DNA of 64,000 nt from a virus: positions 24,475 to 88,474 of the IMG/VR virus record IMGVR_UViG_3300043411_000910; one strand, written 5' to 3'. Below the pieces are notes generated by a model. The model had not been told where the DNA came from and searched no databases. It worked only from the letters and a program-made list of their open reading frames with translations. Shown one piece after another: positions 5,893 through 51,147 of this stretch. Each line of letters starts with the position of its first letter. The stretch's first letter is position 1. The position numbers were made by a program, and so were the translations under genes.

Positions 5893-6771
5893 ATGAGTAT
5901 TAAATTTCTAGAAGATATAAAAAAAGAAGTTTTTAATGATCCAACTTCAGATGATATACAAGGTCAAATAAACAAAAATGGTTTTGCTTTACCTCCAGTC
6001 GCAATAGCTAATGGAAATGGTCTTCCAACTATGAAGAATTATGGTAGGTATACTAAGGCTAAATTAAAGCGTAACATTATTTCATGGCTTGTTCCAGAGA
6101 TAGGTCTAGTTAAGATGTATATAAATCCTGAGTCTATTTCTATCAATGATAAAAAGTTGATACAAAAAGAACAAACAAAGGGTGGATTCTCTTTGCAATA
6201 TTGGGGAGAAGATCTAAAAACAATAAGATTATCAGGAACTACTGGAAGCTCTGGGATAGAAGGTGTTAATTTACTACACGAGATTTATAGAGCAGAACAA
6301 CATGTATTTGATGGAACAGCATTAACAATAGCAAATAAAAATGCAGCTACTACAGATCTTATTTCAAAGGGCGTAGATTCTATATTTTCTGGTGTAGGTA
6401 GTTTATTCGGTGGAGGGTCAACAGTTTCATCTATATTAGGATTAGGTGCTGGATTAACTAAAGGCGCACTTGGTGTAGATTCTAGTTTAGCACCAAGTAT
6501 TATTCCTTCTCTAGCTCAATACGCTTTTACAGTTGAGATGTTTTATGATGGTTTAGTTCATAGAGGGTATTTTACTGATATGTCTGTTACCGAAGCTACG
6601 GATTTTCTTTTTAAGTATGATATATCTTTTACGGTTACACAAACGAGAGGATATAGAACTAATTATTTAGGATGGCATAAATCACCAAATAACGCACCAA
6701 GTAGAGATAATCCAGAATCACCTTATTCGGCTTATGGTGATGATTATTCTTTCGATAGGAAATTAGGATGA
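5893..6771 (+). CDS. Baseplate/tube-initiator-like protein
   Basis: A 292-residue protein between tape measure and hub. The conserved-looking core is MYINPESISINDKKLIQKEQ, followed by TKGGFSLQYWGEDLKTIRLS and a GTTGSSGIEG turn. This NP-S ... TKGG-QYWGE-L--I--SG pattern is one I associate with proteins joining tube to hub in contractile systems (Afp7-like/tube initiator). A Gly/Ser-rich, hydrophobic middle (about residues 155-200) precedes a C-terminal strand region with the YAFTVEMFYDG segment. AGGA precedes the start by 8 bases. The end overlaps the hub gene by 4 bases. The exact role is inferred. Confidence 0.55.
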   Translation: MSIKFLEDIKKEVFNDPTSDDIQGQINKNGFALPPVAIANGNGLPTMKNYGRYTKAKLKRNIISWLVPEIGLVKMYINPESISINDKKLIQKEQTKGGFSLQYWGEDLKTIRLSGTTGSSGIEGVNLLHEIYRAEQHVFDGTALTIANKNAATTDLISKGVDSIFSGVGSLFGGGSTVSSILGLGAGLTKGALGVDSSLAPSIIPSLAQYAFTVEMFYDGLVHRGYFTDMSVTEATDFLFKYDISFTVTQTRGYRTNYLGWHKSPNNAPSRDNPESPYSAYGDDYSFDRKLG

Positions 6772-9700
6772 GTTTTTTAGAAGGCTTGACAAATAAATTA
6801 TCATCAGCTCTTACAGTATCAGAGAATTCAAAAGACAATTTGAATTATTCTGATTTTGAAAATATATCTAATAAAGTAGATACATCTGCAACTAGAAATT
6901 ATGTAGAAGAAGGGTTTTCAAGAACTGATCCATATTTCACTGATATTAAATCTATAGAGATACTTATGCAAGAGCCAAGCGCTACAGTCTTGGTTAAAAA
7001 GAAAATGTTTTCATCTCTTGCTAATAACTTTAGACCAGATTATATGAGCAAGGATGAAAAGTTATTTTATAAAGCATGCAATGCATTGTTTTATAATAAA
7101 GCTCAACAAATATCTGCTTTAGAAAGATTATCGAAGATAGAGAAGATAATTGATAAAAATGAAACACTAACAGATAGCTTTATGCCATCTATAATTAGTC
7201 TAGTTGATTCATTAACTGCAAATGATTCTATAGTTGGTACTACTAGCTTATTTGGTGGTAATAATGGTCTTAAAGATTTGTTTAGTATAACTGACCGTAT
7301 AAGAAAATTATATGCATTTACCAAACCATCTCAATTTACTAAATGGATAGATTCGCCTACAGCAATGTTTTCTGGAGTTTATGGAGAAGGTACTGGTGTA
7401 TTTGAAATAACTAACTTTACTGATTTCAGTACAGCTGTAGGAAATTCATTAGGAAAAGGTAGAGCGGATTTTAATATAGTTGATCCATATAAAGCCTCTT
7501 TTATTACAGAATATGATATCGAGAAGGCAATAAGTGATGCTACCAATTTGTTCTATAATAAAAAGACATTTAATTTCTCTGAGTCACAAATAAACGAATC
7601 CATTGGTACATATAAAGCTAAACTAAATTCTTTAAGATCTAAAAGAAGAGTTTCTGAGATAGATGTTTCTATTAACCCTGACTCTTCAATAGGAGAAAAA
7701 GTTGTAGCTAGATTAACTAATGGTCAAAAAATAATTTTTACACAGAATTCATCCAAAGCATTAGGCTCATTATTTTCTTTTAGTTTATCTAATAAATCAT
7801 CTGAAGTAGAAGTCTCAGGTGCATATTTAATAGATGGAGAAATACTTGGCAATCAAGGTCTTAATACAAAAGCAGAAGATGTAAATGTTTTTGAGTCAGG
7901 AAGTTTCTTATACAATAAAACTTCTGAGCTTGAATTATTTCAAAACTTGATTTCTTCAATATACTTGAAACTTACACTAACTAATAATTCTCAAAATACT
8001 TTTCAAATAAATAACCAACTAACTAATTATGCAAGACGTAAGATGAATTTCTATTTTCTTGGTAGAAATATAATTCAGCCTATGGATGAAGTGAGAATAT
8101 TCATTTCATCTAAAACAAAATTAGATTCAAATGTTAGCAGTGGTTTGCGTGAAGCATTTGCTGGTCAAAATTTTATAGAGAAATTCTCTTCAACAGTTTA
8201 TGACATACAAAATCAATTCAATGCAATATTTAATGCATCCCAGAATCTAGATCTACAGGCTGAGAAATCAATATATGTTGGTCAAAGTTTTCCTAATCAA
8301 TTATGGAATATGATCCGTGGGTATTTTGTTAATGATAAAGAAGGACCATGTGTATTTGCTGGGGTTGTTGGATCTTCTAATTTATCAGGATCTCCAGGAT
8401 CTTATAAATTATCAGTTAATTGCTCTGACAATTCAAGTTATTTCAATAATGGGCAAGTAAATTTCAATCCAGGTGTTGATAATTTCAATGGTTATATATA
8501 TGACCCATTGACACCGTTTGAATCCAAATTTGATCAAGTTAGTACAAATTTAACGAATCAAATTCCACAATTATTAGAAGAAAATAGAATTATATTAAAT
8601 AATGCTGGCAAAGGTATATTAAAATATAAATCTGGTCCTGGAGCTGGGCAATTAGCGACTCAAGATAATTTTATTCAAGACGTATCAATAGATCCAAGAA
8701 CTGGTGCTAAGAAACAAGTTTATTATGGTCCTGATGGATTAGTGTATAATTGGAAACAAGGTATAGGTGTATTTACTCAATACGGAAATTCAATTTCACT
8801 TAATGATCCATCAACCGTTGGTAATCAAAATGTATATAATAATCCATTTGCCGGTCAAGATGTAATGAATGTTATATCTTTGGCTATTACTGGTAAACCA
8901 TATAATTTTATAAATTATTGGAAAGCTGTTCAAAATCTAGAAGGATACTCAAGAGATCCTTATAATAATACTGATGCAGCATATTCTTATTCTAACTCAT
9001 TGAAACAAGACCTAAGCAAAAATAATATGCTATGGGGTAATTTTATACCTTTCAAAACTTTAGTAATAGATGAATTATCTTATGCTAAAGTTTTAAATGC
9101 CGAAAGATCTATACTTAGAACTGTAGATCAATTAGAGGATAATATAAACAAACTAAAAGATATAGACAATGGTTTGTATCTGTTTGGTTTATCTGGCATT
9201 GGTTCTGGAACAGATACTTTTGCTAAAGCAACAATATTATCAGCACAAGCACAAGCTATAAACAATGATGTAGAAGTGTTGAAGAATAATCTTTTACAGG
9301 AGGATGTTTCTAATTATGGTTTAAAAATTGTTGGCTCAGATGTTACTTTTGATGCTGACCAATTTCTATCACAAGAAGATCCTAATAAATCATTAAATCA
9401 ATCTAATGTAAGAAGAAGCCTTAGAAGAAAAACAAACCAATTAACAAGAAGAATGCCTTGGGCTGTAAGAGCAAATGAAGACAAAAATCTATTAATCGTT
9501 GATGACTCTTATGATAAAGATTATGATATAGCTGCTTACGATAAAGCTTTACAATCAAATCTAAGCACTTTATATAGCAATGGATTTACTACAGTTGGTG
9601 AAAATATAACATCAGCAGCTAATTTATTAAATTTAGAAGTTTTTTGTGACACTCAAGGTCACATCAGGGTTCAACCACCACAATATAATAAAATCCCAAG

Positions 9701-38173: not shown

Positions 38174-40891
38174 GTGGAAAAAATAATAATAAAGAACAAT
38201 AAAGAATGCCAACTTCAAACAGAAAATGAAGAAGTAGTAAAAAAAGTAAAAAAGCTATTATCATTTAAAGCAAGCGGTGTTGAATATACTCAAGCATATA
38301 AAAATGGATGGAATGGGATAACTTATTTGCTATCTAACAAAGGTACATTTGGTCTTGGGTTGTTAAATCATGTTATTAATAATTTACCAGAATTTGAATT
38401 TGAGATAGTAGATAACAGGAAAAATACATTTGAATATGTACCAATGGATCTATCTAAAAAACTAGAATCTATAAATATGATTCCACGAGAACATCAAGTA
38501 AGATGTTTAGATGCTGCAAAAAATAATAATAAAGGCATATTAAGATCGGCAACAGGTTCAGGGAAATGCAACAACATAGATTCTGTTAATTTAACAGAGC
38601 TTGGTATGCTCTCTTATAGGGAGCTTTCTGAGTATTTTAATATTTCTTTAAACGATGGAGAAGCTTATCCCATAAAAATAGATGTAGCTACACCATTGAA
38701 TAAAGATAGAGATGAAGCATCTATGATTTACCATGATGGTAAAACAATGTCAAAAAAAATAACTACAAGATTTGGTTACTCTGTTACCGGGACTTTAGAT
38801 CATAAAATTAAAGTAATTGACAAATCTGGTGATTTTCTTTGGAAAAGAATGGAAGACTTGTCATTTGATGATTATGCGGTTATCTCATATAATAATCAGA
38901 TGTTTGGTAAAGAAAAAATGTCAAATGATGAGGCTTATTTTCTTGGATTAATTATAGGGGATGGGTCGATTACCGATTCGCATAAAAATAGCATAACCAT
39001 AACGAATATGGATCAACATATAATAGATTTTGTAATGAAATATACCAAATCTATTGGTCTGAATCCAAAACTATCACAAACAAAATCTAAAGCGCACAAT
39101 ATACACGTACACTCTTCAAAATATAGAAAACATTTATTAAATCTTGGGGTTAAGTATTGTAAATCGACAGGTAAAGAAATTCCTAAATATATTAGAATGC
39201 TAGAGAAAGAGCCTTTATCTTACTTGATAAGGGGTATTTATGAGACAGATGGTTGGGTTGAAAAGACAAATGACTCAACTTGTATTTGTTTAGCACTTTC
39301 AAATGAAAAAATAATAGAACAGATCCAACTAATTTTACTTAATTTTGGAATTGTATCAAGCAAATCTGTAAAAAAGACAAAAAATGAAAACTCACATAAA
39401 ATTACAATATATTCATCATTTGTTGATAGATTTATGGAGCAAATTGGCTTAGATAAATTGGGTCATAAATATAATAAAGTAATGTCTAGTGTAAAAAAAG
39501 TAAAAAATGATAATGTTGATTTGATACCAAATCAAGAAGATAAGATAAATAATATATATAAAATAATCACAAAAGAAAAAATAAACTTAACTGTAAAAAA
39601 ACATACAATTAGATCATGGGCTTCATGGAGAACTCCATCTAGATCTAATTTAAAATCAATGATTTATGAATTTGAAAATAAATACAAGGAAACTTATGAT
39701 TCATTGAAAATAAAAGAAATATTGGACGGGGATTTAATCTATCTAAAGATAGAAAAAATAGAAAATGTTATGTCTGATAATTATGATTTCTCAATACCTA
39801 AAACTCATAGTTTTGTTTCGCAAGGTTTTATAAATCATAACACAATGATTGCTGCCATGATTGCTGCTGAATTTAATGAACCAACTATAATATATGTCAT
39901 AGGCTTGGATCTACTACAACAATTCCATAATTTATTTTCAAAGATATTTGATGAGGAAATTGGTTGGATTGGAAATGGAATTGTTAATCCAAAAAGAATC
40001 ACAATAGCAAGTATATGGTCATTAGGATCAGCATTAGATTTTAAAAAGACTTTATTTCTAGATGATGAGGCAACAAAAGAATTACCTGCATCATTGCAAG
40101 ATAAGAAGAAAATTCTAGAATGTTTAAAGGCAGCTAAGACTCATATAATTGATGAATGCCATGCATGTACTTGTGATACTATTCAGAGTATCTATAAATT
40201 TATAGATCCAAAAAGAATATATGGTTTATCAGGAACTCCATACAGAGATGATGGCAGTGACTTATTAGTTACTTCATTACTTGGTGAAATAATAGAAGAT
40301 GTATCTGCTTCTGAACTAATAGAAAAGAAAATCTTAACAGAGCCAATAATAAAATTTGTTATGGTTCCACATCAAAATATTCAAGTAAGAACATACAATG
40401 AAGTATACAAAGAATATGTTGTTTGTAATGAATACAGAAACAATATGATATTATCTCAATCAATTAAGCTAATAGAAAAGGGATACAAAGTTCTTGTGCT
40501 ATTTAAAACAATAGATCATGGCAAGATGCTTCTTGAAATGTTTAGAGATAAAAATGTAAATTGTGATTTGTTAAATGGTAATGATAGTTTAGATAAAAGA
40601 AATGAGGTTAAGGCTAAATTAGAAGCTGGCAATCTTGATTGTTTGATAGCTTCTACAATATTAGACATTGGTTTTGATGCTCCGATATTATCGGCATTAG
40701 TTTTAGCTGGAGCTGGGAAATCAAAGATAAGAGCATTACAAAGAATAGGAAGAATTATAAGATTTCATCCATCAAAGAAAAGATGTGCTGTGGTTGACTT
40801 TATGGATAATTGTAGATTCTTAGATAAACATTCTAAGATAAGATATGAGACGTATAAGCAGGAATCTGGATTTAAGATATTAGGAAGTTAA
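38174..40891 (+). CDS. uvsW: UvsW-like superfamily 2 helicase interrupted by an intein
   Basis: The 905-residue precursor would splice to a ~480-residue helicase, close to T4 UvsW size, an ATP-dependent branch-migrating/recombination helicase. The extein has an N-terminal ~90-residue domain, then MIPREHQVRCLDAAKNNNKG, and the Walker A motif ATGSGK at residues 126-131. The intein (132-556) follows, and the motif resumes with Thr557. Further motifs: DECHA (660-664), GLSGTPYRDD (motif III, near 686) and ALQRIGRIIRFHP (motif VI, near 855). Without splicing the P-loop is destroyed, so activity depends on the intein. The start is GTG with no ribosome site; the next ATG is far inside. Replication and repair genes follow. 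Confidence 0.87.
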   Translation: MEKIIIKNNKECQLQTENEEVVKKVKKLLSFKASGVEYTQAYKNGWNGITYLLSNKGTFGLGLLNHVINNLPEFEFEIVDNRKNTFEYVPMDLSKKLESINMIPREHQVRCLDAAKNNNKGILRSATGSGKCNNIDSVNLTELGMLSYRELSEYFNISLNDGEAYPIKIDVATPLNKDRDEASMIYHDGKTMSKKITTRFGYSVTGTLDHKIKVIDKSGDFLWKRMEDLSFDDYAVISYNNQMFGKEKMSNDEAYFLGLIIGDGSITDSHKNSITITNMDQHIIDFVMKYTKSIGLNPKLSQTKSKAHNIHVHSSKYRKHLLNLGVKYCKSTGKEIPKYIRMLEKEPLSYLIRGIYETDGWVEKTNDSTCICLALSNEKIIEQIQLILLNFGIVSSKSVKKTKNENSHKITIYSSFVDRFMEQIGLDKLGHKYNKVMSSVKKVKNDNVDLIPNQEDKINNIYKIITKEKINLTVKKHTIRSWASWRTPSRSNLKSMIYEFENKYKETYDSLKIKEILDGDLIYLKIEKIENVMSDNYDFSIPKTHSFVSQGFINHNTMIAAMIAAEFNEPTIIYVIGLDLLQQFHNLFSKIFDEEIGWIGNGIVNPKRITIASIWSLGSALDFKKTLFLDDEATKELPASLQDKKKILECLKAAKTHIIDECHACTCDTIQSIYKFIDPKRIYGLSGTPYRDDGSDLLVTSLLGEIIEDVSASELIEKKILTEPIIKFVMVPHQNIQVRTYNEVYKEYVVCNEYRNNMILSQSIKLIEKGYKVLVLFKTIDHGKMLLEMFRDKNVNCDLLNGNDSLDKRNEVKAKLEAGNLDCLIASTILDIGFDAPILSALVLAGAGKSKIRALQRIGRIIRFHPSKKRCAVVDFMDNCRFLDKHSKIRYETYKQESGFKILGS
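38567..39841 (+). mobile_element. Full-length intein with LAGLIDADG endonuclease in the helicase P-loop
   Basis: A 425-residue intein (residues 132-556 of the precursor) begins with Cys132 directly after GSGK and ends with Asn556 before Thr557, giving a Cys ... His-Asn/Thr splice site. Block B is YSVTGTLDHKIKVID, and block F/G is SFVSQGFINHN. The centre carries two LAGLIDADG helices, YFLGLIIGDGSI and LIRGIYETDGWV, each with the catalytic Asp, so the endonuclease looks intact. The insertion lies in the Walker A lysine/threonine step, a typical conserved nucleotide site for inteins. Confidence 0.9.
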
Positions 40892-43882: not shown

Positions 43883-44998
43883 TTGATTAAGCTTACTCAA
43901 GAAGAATTTATAAACAAATGCAAAGCGATCTATAATTCCACTATGGATTACAGTGATACTAAATATATAAATGCAAGAACTGATGTACAAATTAAATGTA
44001 TGATCCATAACATGGACTTTATAATAAAGCCACAATTACATTTAAAAGGAGTTGGATGTAGGAGTTGTTGTAGGTTTATGACATTTGAAAAATTTTTATT
44101 GGAGGCTAGAGCAAAGCATAGAGATAAATTTTTATATGAGTTTAGTGGGGGTAAATTTACCAGGGATTCTAAAATAAATATAAAATGCAAAGACCACGGT
44201 TGGTTTGAGCAAGGACCAACTATTCATCTTAAATCAAGTACTGGTTGTGGTAAGTGTAGTACAATAAAAATTAATAATAAAACACTAAAAGAAAGAAAAG
44301 AGGCATTCATATCAAAAGCTAAAAAAATACATGGTGATAAATTTGACTATTCAAAAGTTGAGTATAAAAATAATATCAAAAAGATAGAAATATCATGTGA
44401 ATACCATGGCTCATTTTTTGTTATGCCAGTATCACATTTAAAACAAAGTTCTAGATGTCCAAAATGTTATTTGGGATTAATAACATTAGATACCGATGAT
44501 TTTATAATTAGATCAACAGAGACCCATGGTGACAGATATGATTACTCAAAATCTGTTTATAAAAATTCGAAAGAATATATAGAAATAATTTGCCAAAAAC
44601 ATGGCTCTTTCTTTCAGAGAGCGGGGCAGCATATATATGGTCAGGGATGTCCTGATTGTAAACCATATCATTCTGGAAAAGAAGATGAGTGGATAGGCTC
44701 TTTAAATAATCCAAATATAGTTAGAAATCACTACATAAAATATGGCAATGAAAGGATACATCCAGATGGTTTTGATCCTATAACAAACACAGTATATGAA
44801 TTTAATGGGTCATATTGGCATGGCGACAATAGAGTATTTAATCATTGCGATACTAATACTTGTGTTGGGAAAACTTTTGGTGAATTATATTCGAAAACAA
44901 TAGATAGAGAAAATAAAATAAAAGAGCTTGGTTACAATTTAGTTGTAATGTGGGAAGAAGATTATAAACAAGGAACAAATGCCAACATATTATCATGA
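43883..44998 (+). CDS. Vsr-like (EDxHD) homing endonuclease with zinc-finger repeats
   Basis: A 371-residue protein. The first ~250 residues hold four copies of a ~65-residue unit ending in a C-x2-H/C-x2-C zinc site (ISCEYHGSFFVMPVSHL ... RCPKC; IICQKHGSFFQ ... GCPDC). The C-terminal ~110 residues are a Vsr-like nuclease: HPDGFDPITNTVYEFNGSYW with Glu306, then His313 and Asp315, then NKIKELGYNLVVMWEEDY. This layout matches the EDxHD homing endonucleases such as I-Bth0305I. It starts with TTG right after the helicase stop and overlaps the next gene by 20 bases, so it was slipped between helicase and zinc-ribbon genes. It may be mobile by cutting at helicase or neighbouring DNA. Confidence 0.83.
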   Translation: MIKLTQEEFINKCKAIYNSTMDYSDTKYINARTDVQIKCMIHNMDFIIKPQLHLKGVGCRSCCRFMTFEKFLLEARAKHRDKFLYEFSGGKFTRDSKINIKCKDHGWFEQGPTIHLKSSTGCGKCSTIKINNKTLKERKEAFISKAKKIHGDKFDYSKVEYKNNIKKIEISCEYHGSFFVMPVSHLKQSSRCPKCYLGLITLDTDDFIIRSTETHGDRYDYSKSVYKNSKEYIEIICQKHGSFFQRAGQHIYGQGCPDCKPYHSGKEDEWIGSLNNPNIVRNHYIKYGNERIHPDGFDPITNTVYEFNGSYWHGDNRVFNHCDTNTCVGKTFGELYSKTIDRENKIKELGYNLVVMWEEDYKQGTNANILS

Positions 44999-46195: not shown

Positions 46196-47161
46196 ATGAT
46201 GAGTAACTTAACGCAAAAAGATAATTCTAGATTTGTTTTATTTCCAATTAAAAACCAAGAGATTTGGAAAATGTATAAAGACGCTGAAGCATCTTTTTGG
46301 ACAGCGGAAGAAGTTGATCTATCAAATGATATGATAGATTGGAATAAGCTTAGCTCAAATGAGCAGCATTTTATAAAATATGTCCTAGCTTTCTTTGCCG
46401 CTTCAGATGGTATAGTTAATGAAAACTTAGCAACTAGATTTTATAATGATGTTGGCTTAGCAGAAGCAAAAGCTTTTTATGCTTTTCAAATGATGATAGA
46501 GTCTATACACAGTGAGATGTATTCGCTTCTAATAGATACATATGTTAAAGACTCAAATGAGAAAAAAGATTTGTTTAATGCGATAGATACTGTTCCATGT
46601 GTCAGTAAAAAAGCCGAATGGGCTTTAAAGTGGATTGATTCAAACAAATCCTTTGAAGAAAGGCTAATAGCATTTGCGTGCGTTGAAGGTATATTTTTCT
46701 CTTCAAGCTTTTGTAGTATATATTGGCTAAAGAAACGTGGATTGATGCCAGGATTATCATTCTCAAATGAACTTATTTCTAGAGATGAAAACATGCATTG
46801 TGAATTTGCCTGCTTATTAAGCTCTGTATCGGATGTGAAAGTTTCTAGAGAAAGAATATTAGAAATATTGACTGAGGCAGTTGATATAGAAAGGATTTTT
46901 TGTAGTAATTCTATTCCTGTTGAATTAATAGGGATGAATAGTAAATTAATGATTCAATATGTAGAATTTATTGCTGATAGGCTTTTAAATATGTTAGGAC
47001 AAGATAAGTTCTATAATTCAAAAAATCCATTTGATTTCATGGAGTCAATAAGCTTACAAGGTAAAAGCAATTTCTTTGAAAAAAGAGTTGGCGATTACAA
47101 GAAAGCTGGTGTTGGCAACTCAAAAGAAGAAAATCAAATAGGATTTGAAGCAGACTTTTAA
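46196..47161 (+). CDS. nrdB: Ribonucleotide reductase, class I, small subunit
   Basis: A 321-residue small subunit that makes the tyrosyl radical used to reduce ribonucleotides. The metal ligands are in place: Asp71 (ASDGIVNE), Glu102 and His105 (IESIHSEMY), Glu164 (VEGIFFSSS), Glu198 and His201 (RDENMHCEF), with spacing equal to the known D-31-E and E-34-E distances. Tyr109 is at the radical position (E-x2-H-x3-Y). The double ATG at 46196/46199 has AGGA in front. The gene is complete and uninterrupted, and nrdA follows after 15 bases. It supplies dNTPs for phage DNA synthesis. Confidence 0.93.
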
Positions 47162-47176
47162 TAATGGAGAAAAAAA

Positions 47177-48778
47177 ATGCTAGTAACTAAACGAGATGGA
47201 AGCACTGAAGTAGTAAAATTTGAAAAAATTCTAAAAAGAATCCAAAGGCAATCTAAGGATCTAAAAAACATAGACGCGCACGAAGTTGCGCAGAAAGTAA
47301 TATTGGGATTATATGATAAGGTTACCACAAAAGAGCTTGATGATTTAGCTATACAAACAGCATACGCATCTACAACAAAACATCCTGATTATGATAAATT
47401 GGCTGTCAGGCTAGAGATAACAAGACTACATAAGGAAACAGATAGTACTTTTTCAAATGTAATAGAAAGTTTAAATAAAATAAAAGATAAGAATGGTAAT
47501 GATAAGAAATTAATAGCAGAAAATGTAATGAAGTTTGTAAAGAAAAATTTGCATGTATTAAACACTGCCATAGATTATAATAGAGATTTTAAATTTGATT
47601 TTTTTGGATTAAAAACTCTTCAAAGGTCGTATCTTTTAAAAATAAATGAAAAGATCGTTGAGCGTCCGCAGCACATGTGGATGCGCGTTGCTTGTGGGAT
47701 ACATTATGATGATATTGATGCTTGTATTAATACTTATAATATGCTAAGTAATATGGAAGCTACACATGCAACACCAACATTATTTAATTCTGGTTTAATA
47801 AAGAATCAACTTTCTAGTTGCTTCCTTGTAGCAATGAAGGATGATAGTGTGTCTGGGATATATGATACATTAAAAGAATGTGCATTGATATCACAATCGG
47901 CTGGTGGTATAGGATTACATGCCCACAATATTAGATCAAAAGGATCTCCTATATATGGGACAAATGGAACAAGCAATGGATTAGTTCCTATGTTGAAAGT
48001 ATTTAATGAAACTGCCAAGTATGTTGATCAAGGTGGAAATAAACGTAAAGGAAGTATAGCTATATATCTAGAGCCGTGGCACGCCGATGTAATTGATTTT
48101 CTTGATCTAAGAAAGAATAACGGCAAAGAAGAGTTAAGGGCTAGAGATTTAAATCTTGCTATATGGGCTCCTGACTTATTCTTTAAAAGAGTTAAAGCTG
48201 ATGAAGATTGGTGCTTAATGGACCCAAATGTGTCAAAAGGTTTATCTGATGTATATGGAGATGAATTTGATGCATTATATACAAAATATGAATCTGAAGG
48301 AAAATTTGTATCTAAGGTAAAAGCTAGAGATATTTGGTCTAAGATACTAGAATCGCAATTAGAAACTGGTCAACCATATTTATTAGCAAAAGATGCTGGA
48401 AATAAAAAATCAAATCAAAAAAATATAGGAACAATAAAATCTAGCAATTTATGTATTGATGGAGATGCTTTTGTAAGGGTTAAGAAAGATTTAGATGTTA
48501 ACTCTGATGAATTTTTATTTACAATGAAAGAGGTAGATGAAATGAATAAAGCAAATAAAAATAGTCTCTATATATTAGGATACGACGAGTCTGCCAAAAG
48601 AAAAGTTTATAATAGACTAATTGCTAGTAAGCTAACAAAAGAAAAGGCTAAAGTTGTTAAAATAACATCAAATGGAAAAGAATTAAGGTGTACTCCAGAC
48701 CATAAAGTATATACAAAGAATAGGGGATACGTTGAAGCAATTAATCTAAAAGAAGATGATGAGTTAGATATAATATAA
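47177..48778 (+). CDS. nrdA: Ribonucleotide reductase large subunit, N-terminal half fused to IntN of a split intein
   Basis: A 533-residue product. Residues 1-425 are the N-terminal part of class I NrdA: an ATP-cone (residues about 1-90, KRDGSTEVVKFEKILKRIQR), then HATPTLFNSG, QLSSCFLVAMKDDSVSGIYD with the first redox cysteine, SAGGIGLHAHNIRSKGS, and EPWHADVIDFLDLRKNNG. At Cys426, after KSSNL, an intein N-part starts (CIDGDAFVRV, then RCTPDHKVYTKNRGY as block B) and runs to a stop at 48776. Two further genes lie before the rest of NrdA. The active enzyme needs trans-splicing with the product at 49957. GGAG lies before the ATG. Confidence 0.93.
   Translation: MLVTKRDGSTEVVKFEKILKRIQRQSKDLKNIDAHEVAQKVILGLYDKVTTKELDDLAIQTAYASTTKHPDYDKLAVRLEITRLHKETDSTFSNVIESLNKIKDKNGNDKKLIAENVMKFVKKNLHVLNTAIDYNRDFKFDFFGLKTLQRSYLLKINEKIVERPQHMWMRVACGIHYDDIDACINTYNMLSNMEATHATPTLFNSGLIKNQLSSCFLVAMKDDSVSGIYDTLKECALISQSAGGIGLHAHNIRSKGSPIYGTNGTSNGLVPMLKVFNETAKYVDQGGNKRKGSIAIYLEPWHADVIDFLDLRKNNGKEELRARDLNLAIWAPDLFFKRVKADEDWCLMDPNVSKGLSDVYGDEFDALYTKYESEGKFVSKVKARDIWSKILESQLETGQPYLLAKDAGNKKSNQKNIGTIKSSNLCIDGDAFVRVKKDLDVNSDEFLFTMKEVDEMNKANKNSLYILGYDESAKRKVYNRLIASKLTKEKAKVVKITSNGKELRCTPDHKVYTKNRGYVEAINLKEDDELDII
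48452..48775 (+). mobile_element. Split intein, N-terminal part (IntN) in NrdA
   Basis: 108 residues from Cys426 to Ile533: block A CIDGDAFVRV and block B TPDHKVYTKNRGYVEAINLK, ending DDELDII before the stop. It lacks blocks F/G, which are found 1.2 kb downstream at 49957-50055. Confidence 0.88.
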
Positions 48779-48865
48779 CTAATCCCTGTGGTGCTAGGTT
48801 ACGCATATATTAATATTTTATTACTGTATACACAGGTTAGATGATTTAGTTGTTTATGGAGCATC

Positions 48866-49960
48866 ATGAAATGTAGACTTACTGGAATGGACATGGATCT
48901 TACTTTTTGGCACAGTTTAAAGAAAAATAAAATAATTAATGAAATGTATGAAGAAGAAATGCTATCTAAAAACCCAGAGGCATATAAAGCATATGTTGAA
49001 TCAAATAAACATATAAATTTCTTAAAGAAGTGGATAAAGGGAGAGGGTATAAATTGCAAAATTACTGGAAAATTAATTCCAGTAGAAAAAATAATTTCAA
49101 CACCAAATACAAATCTTTACTATTCTGATGTTGAGACTCGCATAGCTCGTGGTTCATCATTCAGGGGCAAGAAAAGACCAGAGTTTGCTAAAAAAATATC
49201 TTCTATTTTAAAAGGAAGACCAAAAACAGATGAAGATAAAAAACAAAGCTCTGATAGATTAAAGTCTATAGGATTTAAGAAAAAAGTTTTGTTAAATAAA
49301 AGCATTATAGACGAATTATGCAATGATGAGATAAAAATAAGAGAATTATATAAGAAAATGTACTCTGATCTTCAAAAAGGAATAGAGTATAAAAGAAGAT
49401 TTGTAATAAAAAATATAAATAAATATATTGAGGATTTTAATGGGTCTTTAGATTATTTAGCATTTGCACCTGAAGATGAAATAAGAATAATATTTAGTGA
49501 ATTACAGTCGATAAAGTCATCGATAGCCATGAGGGATAACCCAACCATGGGCAATGCCAAAGTAGTACTAATGACTGACCTTAAGCATAATAATAACGGG
49601 CTAGTTGAAGTTAAAGTAAGGTCGGTCATGGAGTCAGAAATAATAAAAATGTTCGAAAGATATGGTGTAAAATGGGAATATGAAACGGAGACTATTGAAT
49701 ACTTCTATCTTTTCAATAGAAAATATACGGTTGATTTTAAATTTTATTATAACGATAAAATATATTATTTAGAAGTTAAAGGGTCCGTTAGATCTACTGA
49801 TCACGATAAAATAGTAACCAAGGCTGAATTCGCTGTTAAGAAATTCGATAATTATATCTTTTATCAAAAAGAATTGATATTAAATATCGATGACTTAATA
49901 AAATATAGGTTAACTCCTGATGATAAAATAAAAATAAAACACTTGTACGAGGTTAAATGA
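48866..49960 (+). CDS. Endonuclease gene between the split nrdA halves (NUMOD3 plus PD-(D/E)XK-like)
   Basis: A 364-residue protein placed between IntN and IntC. An N-terminal cysteine region (KCRLTG and INCKITGKLI) may bind zinc. GKKRPEFAKKISSILKGRP (about residues 100-118) is a NUMOD3-type DNA-binding motif common in homing endonucleases. The C-terminal part has a PD-(D/E)XK nuclease pattern: Glu in the VMESEIIKMFERYG helix, Asp290 (YTVDFKF), Glu303-x-Lys305 (YYLEVKG), then a basic helix. This should cut the intein-less nrdA allele and copy the element. GGAG lies before the ATG, and it ends with ATGA overlapping IntC, so the two are coupled. Confidence 0.8.
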   Translation: MKCRLTGMDMDLTFWHSLKKNKIINEMYEEEMLSKNPEAYKAYVESNKHINFLKKWIKGEGINCKITGKLIPVEKIISTPNTNLYYSDVETRIARGSSFRGKKRPEFAKKISSILKGRPKTDEDKKQSSDRLKSIGFKKKVLLNKSIIDELCNDEIKIRELYKKMYSDLQKGIEYKRRFVIKNINKYIEDFNGSLDYLAFAPEDEIRIIFSELQSIKSSIAMRDNPTMGNAKVVLMTDLKHNNNGLVEVKVRSVMESEIIKMFERYGVKWEYETETIEYFYLFNRKYTVDFKFYYNDKIYYLEVKGSVRSTDHDKIVTKAEFAVKKFDNYIFYQKELILNIDDLIKYRLTPDDKIKIKHLYEVK

Positions 49961-50055
49961 TAAAAATAGAATTGATAAATGAAGAAGTTGATGTTTATGA
50001 TTTTACAATAGAAAATACTCATAATTTTTATGCTAACGACATACTTGTTCATAAT
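49957..50055 (+). mobile_element. Split intein, C-terminal part (IntC) in NrdA
   Basis: 33 residues: block F VDVYDFTIENTHNFYANDIL and block G ILVHN, followed by Cys34 as the +1 residue. It pairs with the IntN at 48452-48775; the splice site is Cys ... Asn/Cys. Confidence 0.88.
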
Positions 50056-51147
50056 TGTTGTGAAATTTTTGAAGTATCTTCTCCGGAAGAAACTGCTGTT
50101 TGTAATTTAGCCTCTATCTCGTTACCATCATTTATAGATAATAAAAATGGGAGAAAAAGCTTTAACTTCTCAAGATTAATAGAGACTTCTAAAACATTGA
50201 CAGAGAATTTAAACAAAATAATAGACAATGAGTATTATCCTGTAGAATCAGCTAAAAAATCAAATAACAGACATAGACCAATAGGTATTGGTGTTCAGGG
50301 TTTAGCTGATGTGTTTGCTCAAATGAGATATTCATGGGAAAGTGAAGAGGCTAAGAAATTAAACAAAGATATTTTTGAATCTATATATTATGGATTCTTA
50401 TGTAAGTCCAATGAACTATCAGAGAAGCTAGGATCATATGAAACATTTGCAGGTAGCCCAGCATCCGAAGGAATGTTACAGTTTGATTTGTGGGGTGTTG
50501 AAGAGTCAAATAGATATGATTGGGGGTCACTAAAAGAAAAGATAAAGCAAAGTGGGTTAAGAAATTCATTAGGGTTAGCGCCAATGCCAACTGCATCCAC
50601 TTCTCAAATAATGGGTAATACCGAATGTTTTGAGCCAATAACCTCTAACATATATAAAAGAGCAACATTATCTGGAGAATTTATACAATTAAATAAATAT
50701 CTTGTAGACGATTTGATTGAGTTAGGATTATGGAATGATCAGATAAGACAAAAGATAATAGCAGCAGAAGGATCAATTCAAAACATAGACGAGATTCCAT
50801 CTGATTTAAAGAAATTATATAAAACAGTTTGGGAAATGTCTCAAAAGGTTTTGATAGATATGTCTGCTGATCGTGCTCCATTTATATGTCAATCACAAAG
50901 TTTAAATCTTTATTTTAAAGATGCTAATTTTGCCAAACTAACATCAGCATATTTCTATGGGTGGGAGAAGGGATTAAAGACAATAGTTTATTATACAAGA
51001 ACGCAAAATAAGAGTGCTCAGAAATTTACTGTTGAATATAATATAGAAAAAGAATTGAAAGAAAAAGCAAAACAAAAAGAAGTTGAGACTGAAGAATTAT
51101 CTTGCTCATTAGATAATCCAGATGCATGTTTATCTTGCGGTAGCTAA
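49957..51147 (+). CDS. nrdA: Split intein IntC fused to the C-terminal half of ribonucleotide reductase large subunit
   Basis: A 396-residue product. Residues 1-33 are IntC, and residues 34-396 are NrdA. The join reads NDILVHN/CCEIF; together with SSNL from the first half it restores S-N-L-C-C-E, matching the site of the radical cysteine. Cys34 is therefore the catalytic thiyl cysteine, Cys49 (ETAVCNL) the second redox cysteine and Glu36 the conserved Glu. Further family blocks: RPIGIGVQGLADVFAQMRYS, PMPTASTSQIMGN, and a C-terminal CLSCGS redox pair. Summed exteins give 788 residues, a normal NrdA size. Confidence 0.93.
   Translation: MIKIELINEEVDVYDFTIENTHNFYANDILVHNCCEIFEVSSPEETAVCNLASISLPSFIDNKNGRKSFNFSRLIETSKTLTENLNKIIDNEYYPVESAKKSNNRHRPIGIGVQGLADVFAQMRYSWESEEAKKLNKDIFESIYYGFLCKSNELSEKLGSYETFAGSPASEGMLQFDLWGVEESNRYDWGSLKEKIKQSGLRNSLGLAPMPTASTSQIMGNTECFEPITSNIYKRATLSGEFIQLNKYLVDDLIELGLWNDQIRQKIIAAEGSIQNIDEIPSDLKKLYKTVWEMSQKVLIDMSADRAPFICQSQSLNLYFKDANFAKLTSAYFYGWEKGLKTIVYYTRTQNKSAQKFTVEYNIEKELKEKAKQKEVETEELSCSLDNPDACLSCGS

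What the first reader, a model, noticed from the sequence alone, without database searches (positions are those of the whole stretch)
48866..49960. Endonuclease inside the split intein looks like NUMOD3 plus PD-(D/E)XK, not the Vsr type
Published fractured genes mostly carry Vsr-like (EDxHD) endonucleases between the intein halves, as I recall. Here the ORF shows a NUMOD3-like motif and a D290 ... E303-V-K305 nuclease core. If confirmed, a different nuclease family has colonised the same kind of site. It is translationally coupled to IntC (ATGA), so its own spread and NrdA repair are linked.
Basis: partly seen in the sequence, partly recalled or inferred. Interest (0 to 1): 0.68.

Follow-up and report, generated by a model that had tools for sequence, protein, structure and literature searches.

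The report
Endonuclease I-type nuclease inside split intein
A virus gene for making DNA building blocks is cut in two by a self-joining protein element, and the DNA-cutting enzyme sitting in the gap is of the phage T7 endonuclease I kind, one of at least three unrelated nuclease types that have settled at this same spot in viral genes.

Summary
ORF 48866-49960 (364 aa) lies between the halves of a split intein in nrdA and overlaps IntC by ATGA. Its C-terminal domain is PD-(D/E)XK, specifically T7 endonuclease I-like: phrog_945 E=2e-9 and a predicted alpha-beta-beta-beta-alpha-beta fold, with E256, D290, E303 and K305 aligning with the T7 residues. It is not Vsr, HNH or GIY-YIG. NUMOD3 is only partly supported: Pfam finds nothing, but residues 106-133 match a Pfam-called NUMOD3 repeat better than every shuffle, and the motif recurs in homologues. 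The insertion lies directly before the RNR radical cysteine. More than 70 related viral nrdA genes are empty there. The closest relative (L044, 74%) has the same split intein with no nuclease. A survey of 147 viral intein loci with this RNR junction found mostly GIY-YIG, fewer HNH and about 11 PD-(D/E)XK, besides nuclease-free split and contiguous inteins. Two homologues of this ORF sit in RNRs only about 25% identical; types are scattered on the RNR tree (at least 27 changes). Most likely it is an intein-linked homing endonuclease cutting empty nrdA alleles. Cutting is inferred, not shown. New variant of a known kind.

The parts
46196..47161 (+). nrdB, class Ia RNR small subunit, directly upstream
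   Evidence: ORF list; the corresponding gene next to nrdA in relative L044 hits PF00268
47177..48451 (+). NrdA N-extein (425 aa), ends ...KSSNL
   Evidence: PF02867/PF00317/ATP-cone; alignment to yeast Rnr1 1zyz
48452..48778 (+). IntN, 108 aa, starts CIDGDAF, block B RCTPDHKVYTKNRGYV, stop TAA
   Evidence: PF14890; closest solved intein NrdJ-1 8ubs E=6.7e-18
48779..48865 (+). 87-nt spacer with GGAG just before the nuclease ATG; no intron family, no significant hairpin
   Evidence: (z=0.63)
48866..49960 (+). free-standing endonuclease ORF, 364 aa
49148..49264 (+). NUMOD3-like stretch, residues 95-133 (RGSSFRGKKRPEFAKKISSILKGRPKTDEDKKQSSDRLK)
   Evidence: shuffle test, conserved in L241 and partly in L239; not called by Pfam
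49613..49900 (+). T7 endonuclease I-like PD-(D/E)XK domain, residues 250-345
   Evidence: phrog_945, PF05367; AlphaFold pLDDT 76.6, alpha-beta-beta-beta-alpha-beta; Foldseek viral 'Endonuclease I' models
49631..49633 (+). E256 codon (T7 Endo I E20 equivalent)
   Evidence: alignments A2, A3, A6
49733..49735 (+). D290 codon (T7 D55 equivalent)
49772..49780 (+). E303-V-K305 codons (T7 E65, K67 equivalents)
49957..50055 (+). IntC, 33 aa, starts at the ATGA overlap, ends ILVHN
   Evidence: PF14890; alignment A1
50056..51147 (+). NrdA C-extein (363 aa); +1 Cys is the radical-cysteine equivalent (yeast C428)
   Evidence: PF02867; alignment to 1zyz

Best explanation
The ORF is a homing endonuclease of the T7 endonuclease I branch of the PD-(D/E)XK superfamily, carried between the halves of a naturally split intein in nrdA. 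Its N-terminal half, with a NUMOD3-like motif, probably recognises the intein-free nrdA sequence around the radical-cysteine codon, and its C-terminal domain cuts there using E256, D290, E303, K305 and metal. Repair of the cut allele from the occupied one copies IntN, nuclease and IntC together. The host phage tolerates this because IntN and IntC trans-splice NrdA. Shown here: gene arrangement, domain identity, conserved catalytic residues, empty and nuclease-free alleles, homologues at the same site in distant RNRs. Inferred: DNA binding, cleavage, repair and trans-splicing.
For: Domain: phrog_945 E=2e-9, PF05367 E=2e-4, profile to PDB 1m0d E=2e-4; all four catalytic residues conserved; predicted PD-(D/E)XK topology at pLDDT 76.6 with viral 'Endonuclease I' models among the best fold matches. 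Location: the intein interrupts nrdA directly before the radical cysteine, and more than 70 viral relatives are uninterrupted there. Dispensability: L044, 74% identical in the NrdA N-extein, has the split intein without a nuclease. Site association: homologues over residues 93-348 (phmmer E 2e-13, tblastn E 5e-12) lie in split inteins at the same site in RNRs about 25% identical. Related nucleases occur free-standing in phages, for example in a Citrobacter phage tRNA cluster and beside thymidylate synthase in HVTV-1, a placement typical of homing endonucleases.
Against: No cleavage data and no identified cut site. The Pfam match is below the curated cut-off and NUMOD3 is not called. T7 endonuclease I itself is a junction resolvase, so a structure-specific rather than sequence-specific activity is possible. 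The full-length model is poor (pLDDT 43), so the DNA-binding half is uncharacterised.
Confidence: 0.8

Rival explanations
1. The ORF is the phage's own Holliday junction resolvase or general endonuclease I that happens to lie between the intein halves and does not drive homing.
For: The domain is closest to T7 endonuclease I, a resolvase; it is the only PF05367 match in the 88-kb record.
Against: The close relative L044 has nothing in the same slot; homologues recur at the same RNR site in distant RNRs; the protein carries about 245 extra N-terminal residues with a NUMOD3-like motif that T7 endonuclease I lacks. The record may be incomplete, so absence of another resolvase is weak evidence.
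Confidence: 0.1
2. A decayed former homing endonuclease with no present activity, retained only as a spacer between the intein halves.
For: L044 and 11 of the surveyed split loci keep a split intein with no nuclease ORF, so loss is common.
Against: The frame is intact over 364 codons, all four catalytic residues are present, and the overlap with IntC is tight.
Confidence: 0.08
3. The nuclease is another fold (EDxHD/Vsr, HNH or GIY-YIG) and the PD-(D/E)XK likeness is accidental.
For: Single-sequence Pfam score is below its cut-off.
Against: Three independent libraries point to endonuclease I, E256-D290-E303-K305 is fully conserved in ten sequences, and the predicted topology is PD-(D/E)XK.
Confidence: 0.02

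Closest known systems
T7 endonuclease I (PDB 1m0d; Pfam PF05367; phrog_945)
   Same: PD-(D/E)XK domain with E...D...ExK in the same order and similar spacing
   Different: T7 enzyme is a 149-aa resolvase; here the domain is the C-terminal third of a 364-aa protein and its C-terminal part is shorter and diverged
Fractured genes with split inteins (Dassa et al. 2009, cited in PMC3653736 and PMC10448857), including NrdJ-1
   Same: Free-standing nuclease between IntN and IntC in an RNR gene; the intein is closest among solved structures to NrdJ-1
   Different: The family newly described there is Vsr-like (EDxHD), as recalled, paper not readable here; this one is endonuclease I-like
Zinc finger + NUMOD3-like + endonuclease I proteins of T4-like and other phages (phrog_15137, Citrobacter phage CkP1 QQG32139)
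   Same: N-terminal recognition motif plus C-terminal endonuclease I domain
   Different: Free-standing, not in an intein; the weak similarity to this ORF (tblastn E=0.2, residues 208-361) is essentially confined to the nuclease region
I-Ssp6803I, PD-(D/E)XK homing endonuclease
   Same: PD-(D/E)XK superfamily used for homing (PMC3943268, PMC6083498)
   Different: Group I intron-encoded, another PD-(D/E)XK branch as far as I know; not compared by sequence here
L239/L211/L215 and L241/L227 nucleases
   Same: Same RNR site, split intein, same architecture over residues 93-348
   Different: 27-31% identical; L241 has about 120 extra C-terminal residues; N-terminal 90 residues diverged

Membership tests
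T7 endonuclease I-like PD-(D/E)XK nucleases | Catalytic E, D, ExK in order on an alpha-beta-beta-beta core | tested here: met
   E256, D290, E303, K305 aligned; topology in model
T7 endonuclease I-like PD-(D/E)XK nucleases | Profile match to the family | tested here: met
   phrog_945 E=2.1e-9; PF05367 E=2.4e-4 but 21.2 bits against a cut-off of 29.1
T7 endonuclease I-like PD-(D/E)XK nucleases | Domain-swapped dimer, junction cleavage | not testable with these tools
   needs protein
Fractured gene with split intein | Gene split into two ORFs ending in IntN and starting with IntC, with intein motifs | tested here: met
Fractured gene with split intein | Intein-free alleles at the same site in relatives | tested here: met
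   more than 70 uninterrupted relatives, sites compared
Fractured gene with split intein | Trans-splicing restores the product | not testable with these tools
   Cys1, block B, C-terminal HN and +1 Cys present; splicing not assayed
Homing endonuclease | Cuts the allele lacking the element at or near the insertion site | not testable with these tools
   inferred
Homing endonuclease | Sporadic presence at a fixed site among relatives | tested here: met
   absent in L044, present in L239 and L241 at the homologous site
NUMOD3 | Pfam PF07460 match | tested here: not met
   no match at E<=10
NUMOD3 | Sequence likeness to a called NUMOD3 repeat above shuffles | tested here: inconclusive
   one repeat: 0 of 1000 shuffles reach the score; a second repeat p=0.02; a third, sub-threshold one, p=0.32
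EDxHD (Vsr-like) homing endonuclease | Vsr-type profile match | tested here: not met
   no Vsr, HNH or GIY-YIG family among the Pfam and NCBIfam hits; the PHROG hits to the nuclease domain are endonuclease I-type or unnamed

The most novel reading that the evidence does not exclude
The codon before the RNR radical cysteine is a shared docking site at which a split intein serves as a reusable cassette: unrelated nucleases (two PD-(D/E)XK branches, GIY-YIG, HNH) have repeatedly replaced one another between the same intein halves, and the endonuclease I-type nucleases form an undescribed homing endonuclease family dedicated to this site.
Probability: 0.5. Interest if true: 0.68.

Novelty: new variant of a known kind. 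Interest (0 to 1): 0.56.

Why it matters
It extends the nuclease types found in fractured split-intein genes to the endonuclease I branch, and shows one insertion site held by at least three nuclease superfamilies, by nuclease-free split inteins and by contiguous inteins. That makes the question of how nucleases move into and between inteins testable by comparing close relatives such as L044 and this phage. The pieces (a split intein near NrdJ-1, a compact PD-(D/E)XK nuclease) may also be useful as tools.

Tried and rejected
Direct searches for close relatives of the ORF in viral and genome collections found none; homologues came instead from scanning for the intein/extein junction. A group I intron or regulatory hairpin in the 87-nt spacer: no Rfam intron, hairpin z=0.63. 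A full-length fold prediction was too poor to use (pLDDT 43); only the nuclease domain was searched. PDB fold matches are weak (best Bax1 nuclease E=6e-4, high rmsd), so they support PD-(D/E)XK only in general. Talia1610 hit: GIY-YIG with NUMOD3 between two separate RNR subunit genes, not a fractured gene. HVTV-1 hit, labelled RFC small subunit in one record: a separate ORF next to thymidylate synthase, not an intein. Defence-system library: no match. The 2009 fractured-genes paper and the I-Bth0305I paper are not in the library.

Full report
What is there. The window is part of an 88,474-base IMG/VR virus record. nrdB (46196-47161) is followed by nrdA in two pieces. The first ORF (47177-48778) holds 425 residues of NrdA and a 108-residue IntN. 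The ORF in question (48866-49960, 364 aa) follows after 87 nt. The last ORF (49957-51147) begins with a 33-residue IntC and continues with 363 residues of NrdA. The nuclease stop and the IntC start overlap as ATGA. The intein has Cys1, block B (RCTPDHKVYTKNRGYV), a C-terminal HN and a +1 Cys. Its nearest solved relative is the split intein NrdJ-1 (8ubs, E=6.7e-18).

Insertion point. Joining the exteins and aligning them to yeast Rnr1 (1zyz, E=3.5e-297) puts the intein between the Leu427 and Cys428 equivalents. From established knowledge of class I RNR, Cys428 (E. coli C439) is the radical-bearing catalytic cysteine. An unspliced NrdA is therefore almost certainly inactive.

The nuclease. Residues about 250-317 match phrog_945 (endonuclease, E=2.1e-9), Pfam Phage_endo_I (E=2.4e-4, 21.2 bits, below its cut-off of 29.1) and, weakly, T7 endonuclease I structures. 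A profile of the ORF with its homologues reaches 1m0d at E=2e-4. E256, D290, E303 and K305 align with the four T7 catalytic residues and are invariant in ten related nucleases. A prediction of the domain alone (pLDDT 76.6, pTM 0.75) gives helix, strands, helix, strand, the PD-(D/E)XK order. Fold search returns several viral 'Endonuclease I' models at E 4e-5 to 1e-3, while PDB matches are weaker and general. No Vsr, HNH or GIY-YIG family appears among the Pfam or NCBIfam hits.

NUMOD3. Pfam's model does not find it. Residues 106-133 align with a NUMOD3 repeat of phage Talia1610, in a protein called by Pfam at 9e-24, with a score no shuffle reached. Homologue L241 has RGHSFRGKRRPDHSKKLKGRP against RGSSFRGKKRPEFAKKISSILKGRP here. 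I call it NUMOD3-like.

Empty and occupied alleles. Of the nrdA relatives fetched by the C-extein, more than 70 run through this site without interruption, as do Tenacibaculum phage pT24 and Cellulophaga phage phi19:2. Locus L044 (73.6% identical in the N-extein) has a split intein at the identical site, but only 54 nt and no ORF separate IntN from IntC. L029 has a split intein one codon later with a GIY-YIG nuclease between the halves.

Survey. Two scans for IntC followed by CxEI gave 147 loci. By motif classes, checked by Pfam or PHROG on representatives: about 65 GIY-YIG, about 12 HNH, about 11 PD-(D/E)XK, 11 split without ORF, 17 contiguous inteins, and the rest truncated or unclassified. 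The PD-(D/E)XK cases fall into two groups: one in RNRs mostly with a TNPC junction (L107, L125, L136, L137, L143, L175, L189), and one that includes this ORF, L129/L211/L215/L239 (one lineage) and L227/L241.

True homologues. Against the surveyed nucleases the ORF matches L215/L211 at E 6e-14 to 2e-13 over residues 93-344, well beyond the catalytic core, and L241/L251 at 30% over residues 95-348, E=5e-12. The RNRs that carry them are only 24-27% identical to this NrdA. In a tree of the C-extein this phage groups with L044 (no nuclease) and seven GIY-YIG loci (support 100), while L211 and L227 sit apart among HNH, contiguous and nuclease-free neighbours. The labels need at least 27 changes, and the three loci of this nuclease group need three. 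The tree was a quick search and cannot separate gain from loss, and nuclease and RNR divergence are similar, so recent transfer is not shown.

Mechanism. I conclude that this is an intein-linked homing endonuclease: cut the empty nrdA site, be copied in with the intein by repair, and be tolerated because the halves trans-splice. Arrangement, domain, residues, empty alleles and sporadic presence are shown; binding, cutting, repair and splicing are inferred. ATGA coupling is real, but short overlaps with IntC are common with GIY-YIG and HNH nucleases as well, so it reflects compact packing and perhaps coupling in general.

Comparison with the literature. PMC3653736 reports that split-intein nrdA and nrdJ genes were found in ocean metagenomes by Dassa et al. 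2009. PMC3943268 and PMC6083498 list PD-(D/E)XK among the homing endonuclease families, with I-Ssp6803I as the intron-borne example. I found no paper in the library that describes an endonuclease I-type nuclease in a split intein, but the library lacks the key 2009 paper and most subscription journals. Free-standing relatives with zinc finger or NUMOD3-like motifs plus an endonuclease I domain are common in phage records and are often annotated simply as endonuclease. Hence 'new variant of a known kind'.

Noticed in passing
window 38174-40891: Contiguous intein with LAGLIDADG-like motifs (LGLIIGDGSI, GIYETDGWV) inside a helicase-like ORF, inserted in the Walker A motif (SATGSGK|CN ... FINHN|TMIAAM); a second, conventional intein in the same phage.
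   Followed up: partly
window 43883-44998: Free-standing homing-endonuclease-like ORF (phrog_681 E=6e-62, phrog_559, DUF723 repeats) with a C-terminus that looks Vsr/EDxHD-like by eye, about 1.2 kb upstream of nrdB.
   Followed up: partly
L044:5500-7550: Second split intein in the same nrdA (NrdA residue 606, AS|CQSGEN ... VVSHN|TSQIMGN) with its own ORF 6010-6966 (phrog_22677), EDxHD-like by eye; one gene in three pieces with one nuclease.
   Followed up: partly
L029:300-1940: Split intein offset by one codon (SNLC|CLTGD ... LVHN|CEIY) with a GIY-YIG plus NUMOD-like nuclease between the halves.
   Followed up: partly
L096, L116, L140, L154, L179, L188 and others: Split inteins at the RNR site with no ORF between the halves: splitting persists after, or exists without, the nuclease.
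   Followed up: partly
L247:2794-3519 (HVTV-1): Endonuclease I-like ORF directly after thymidylate synthase in a haloarchaeal virus, in a cluster with HNH and GIY-YIG nucleases.
   Followed up: no
L004 and L008, near NrdA residue 285: nrdA interrupted at a different position by more than 1 kb in two related viral contigs; nature not examined.
   Followed up: no
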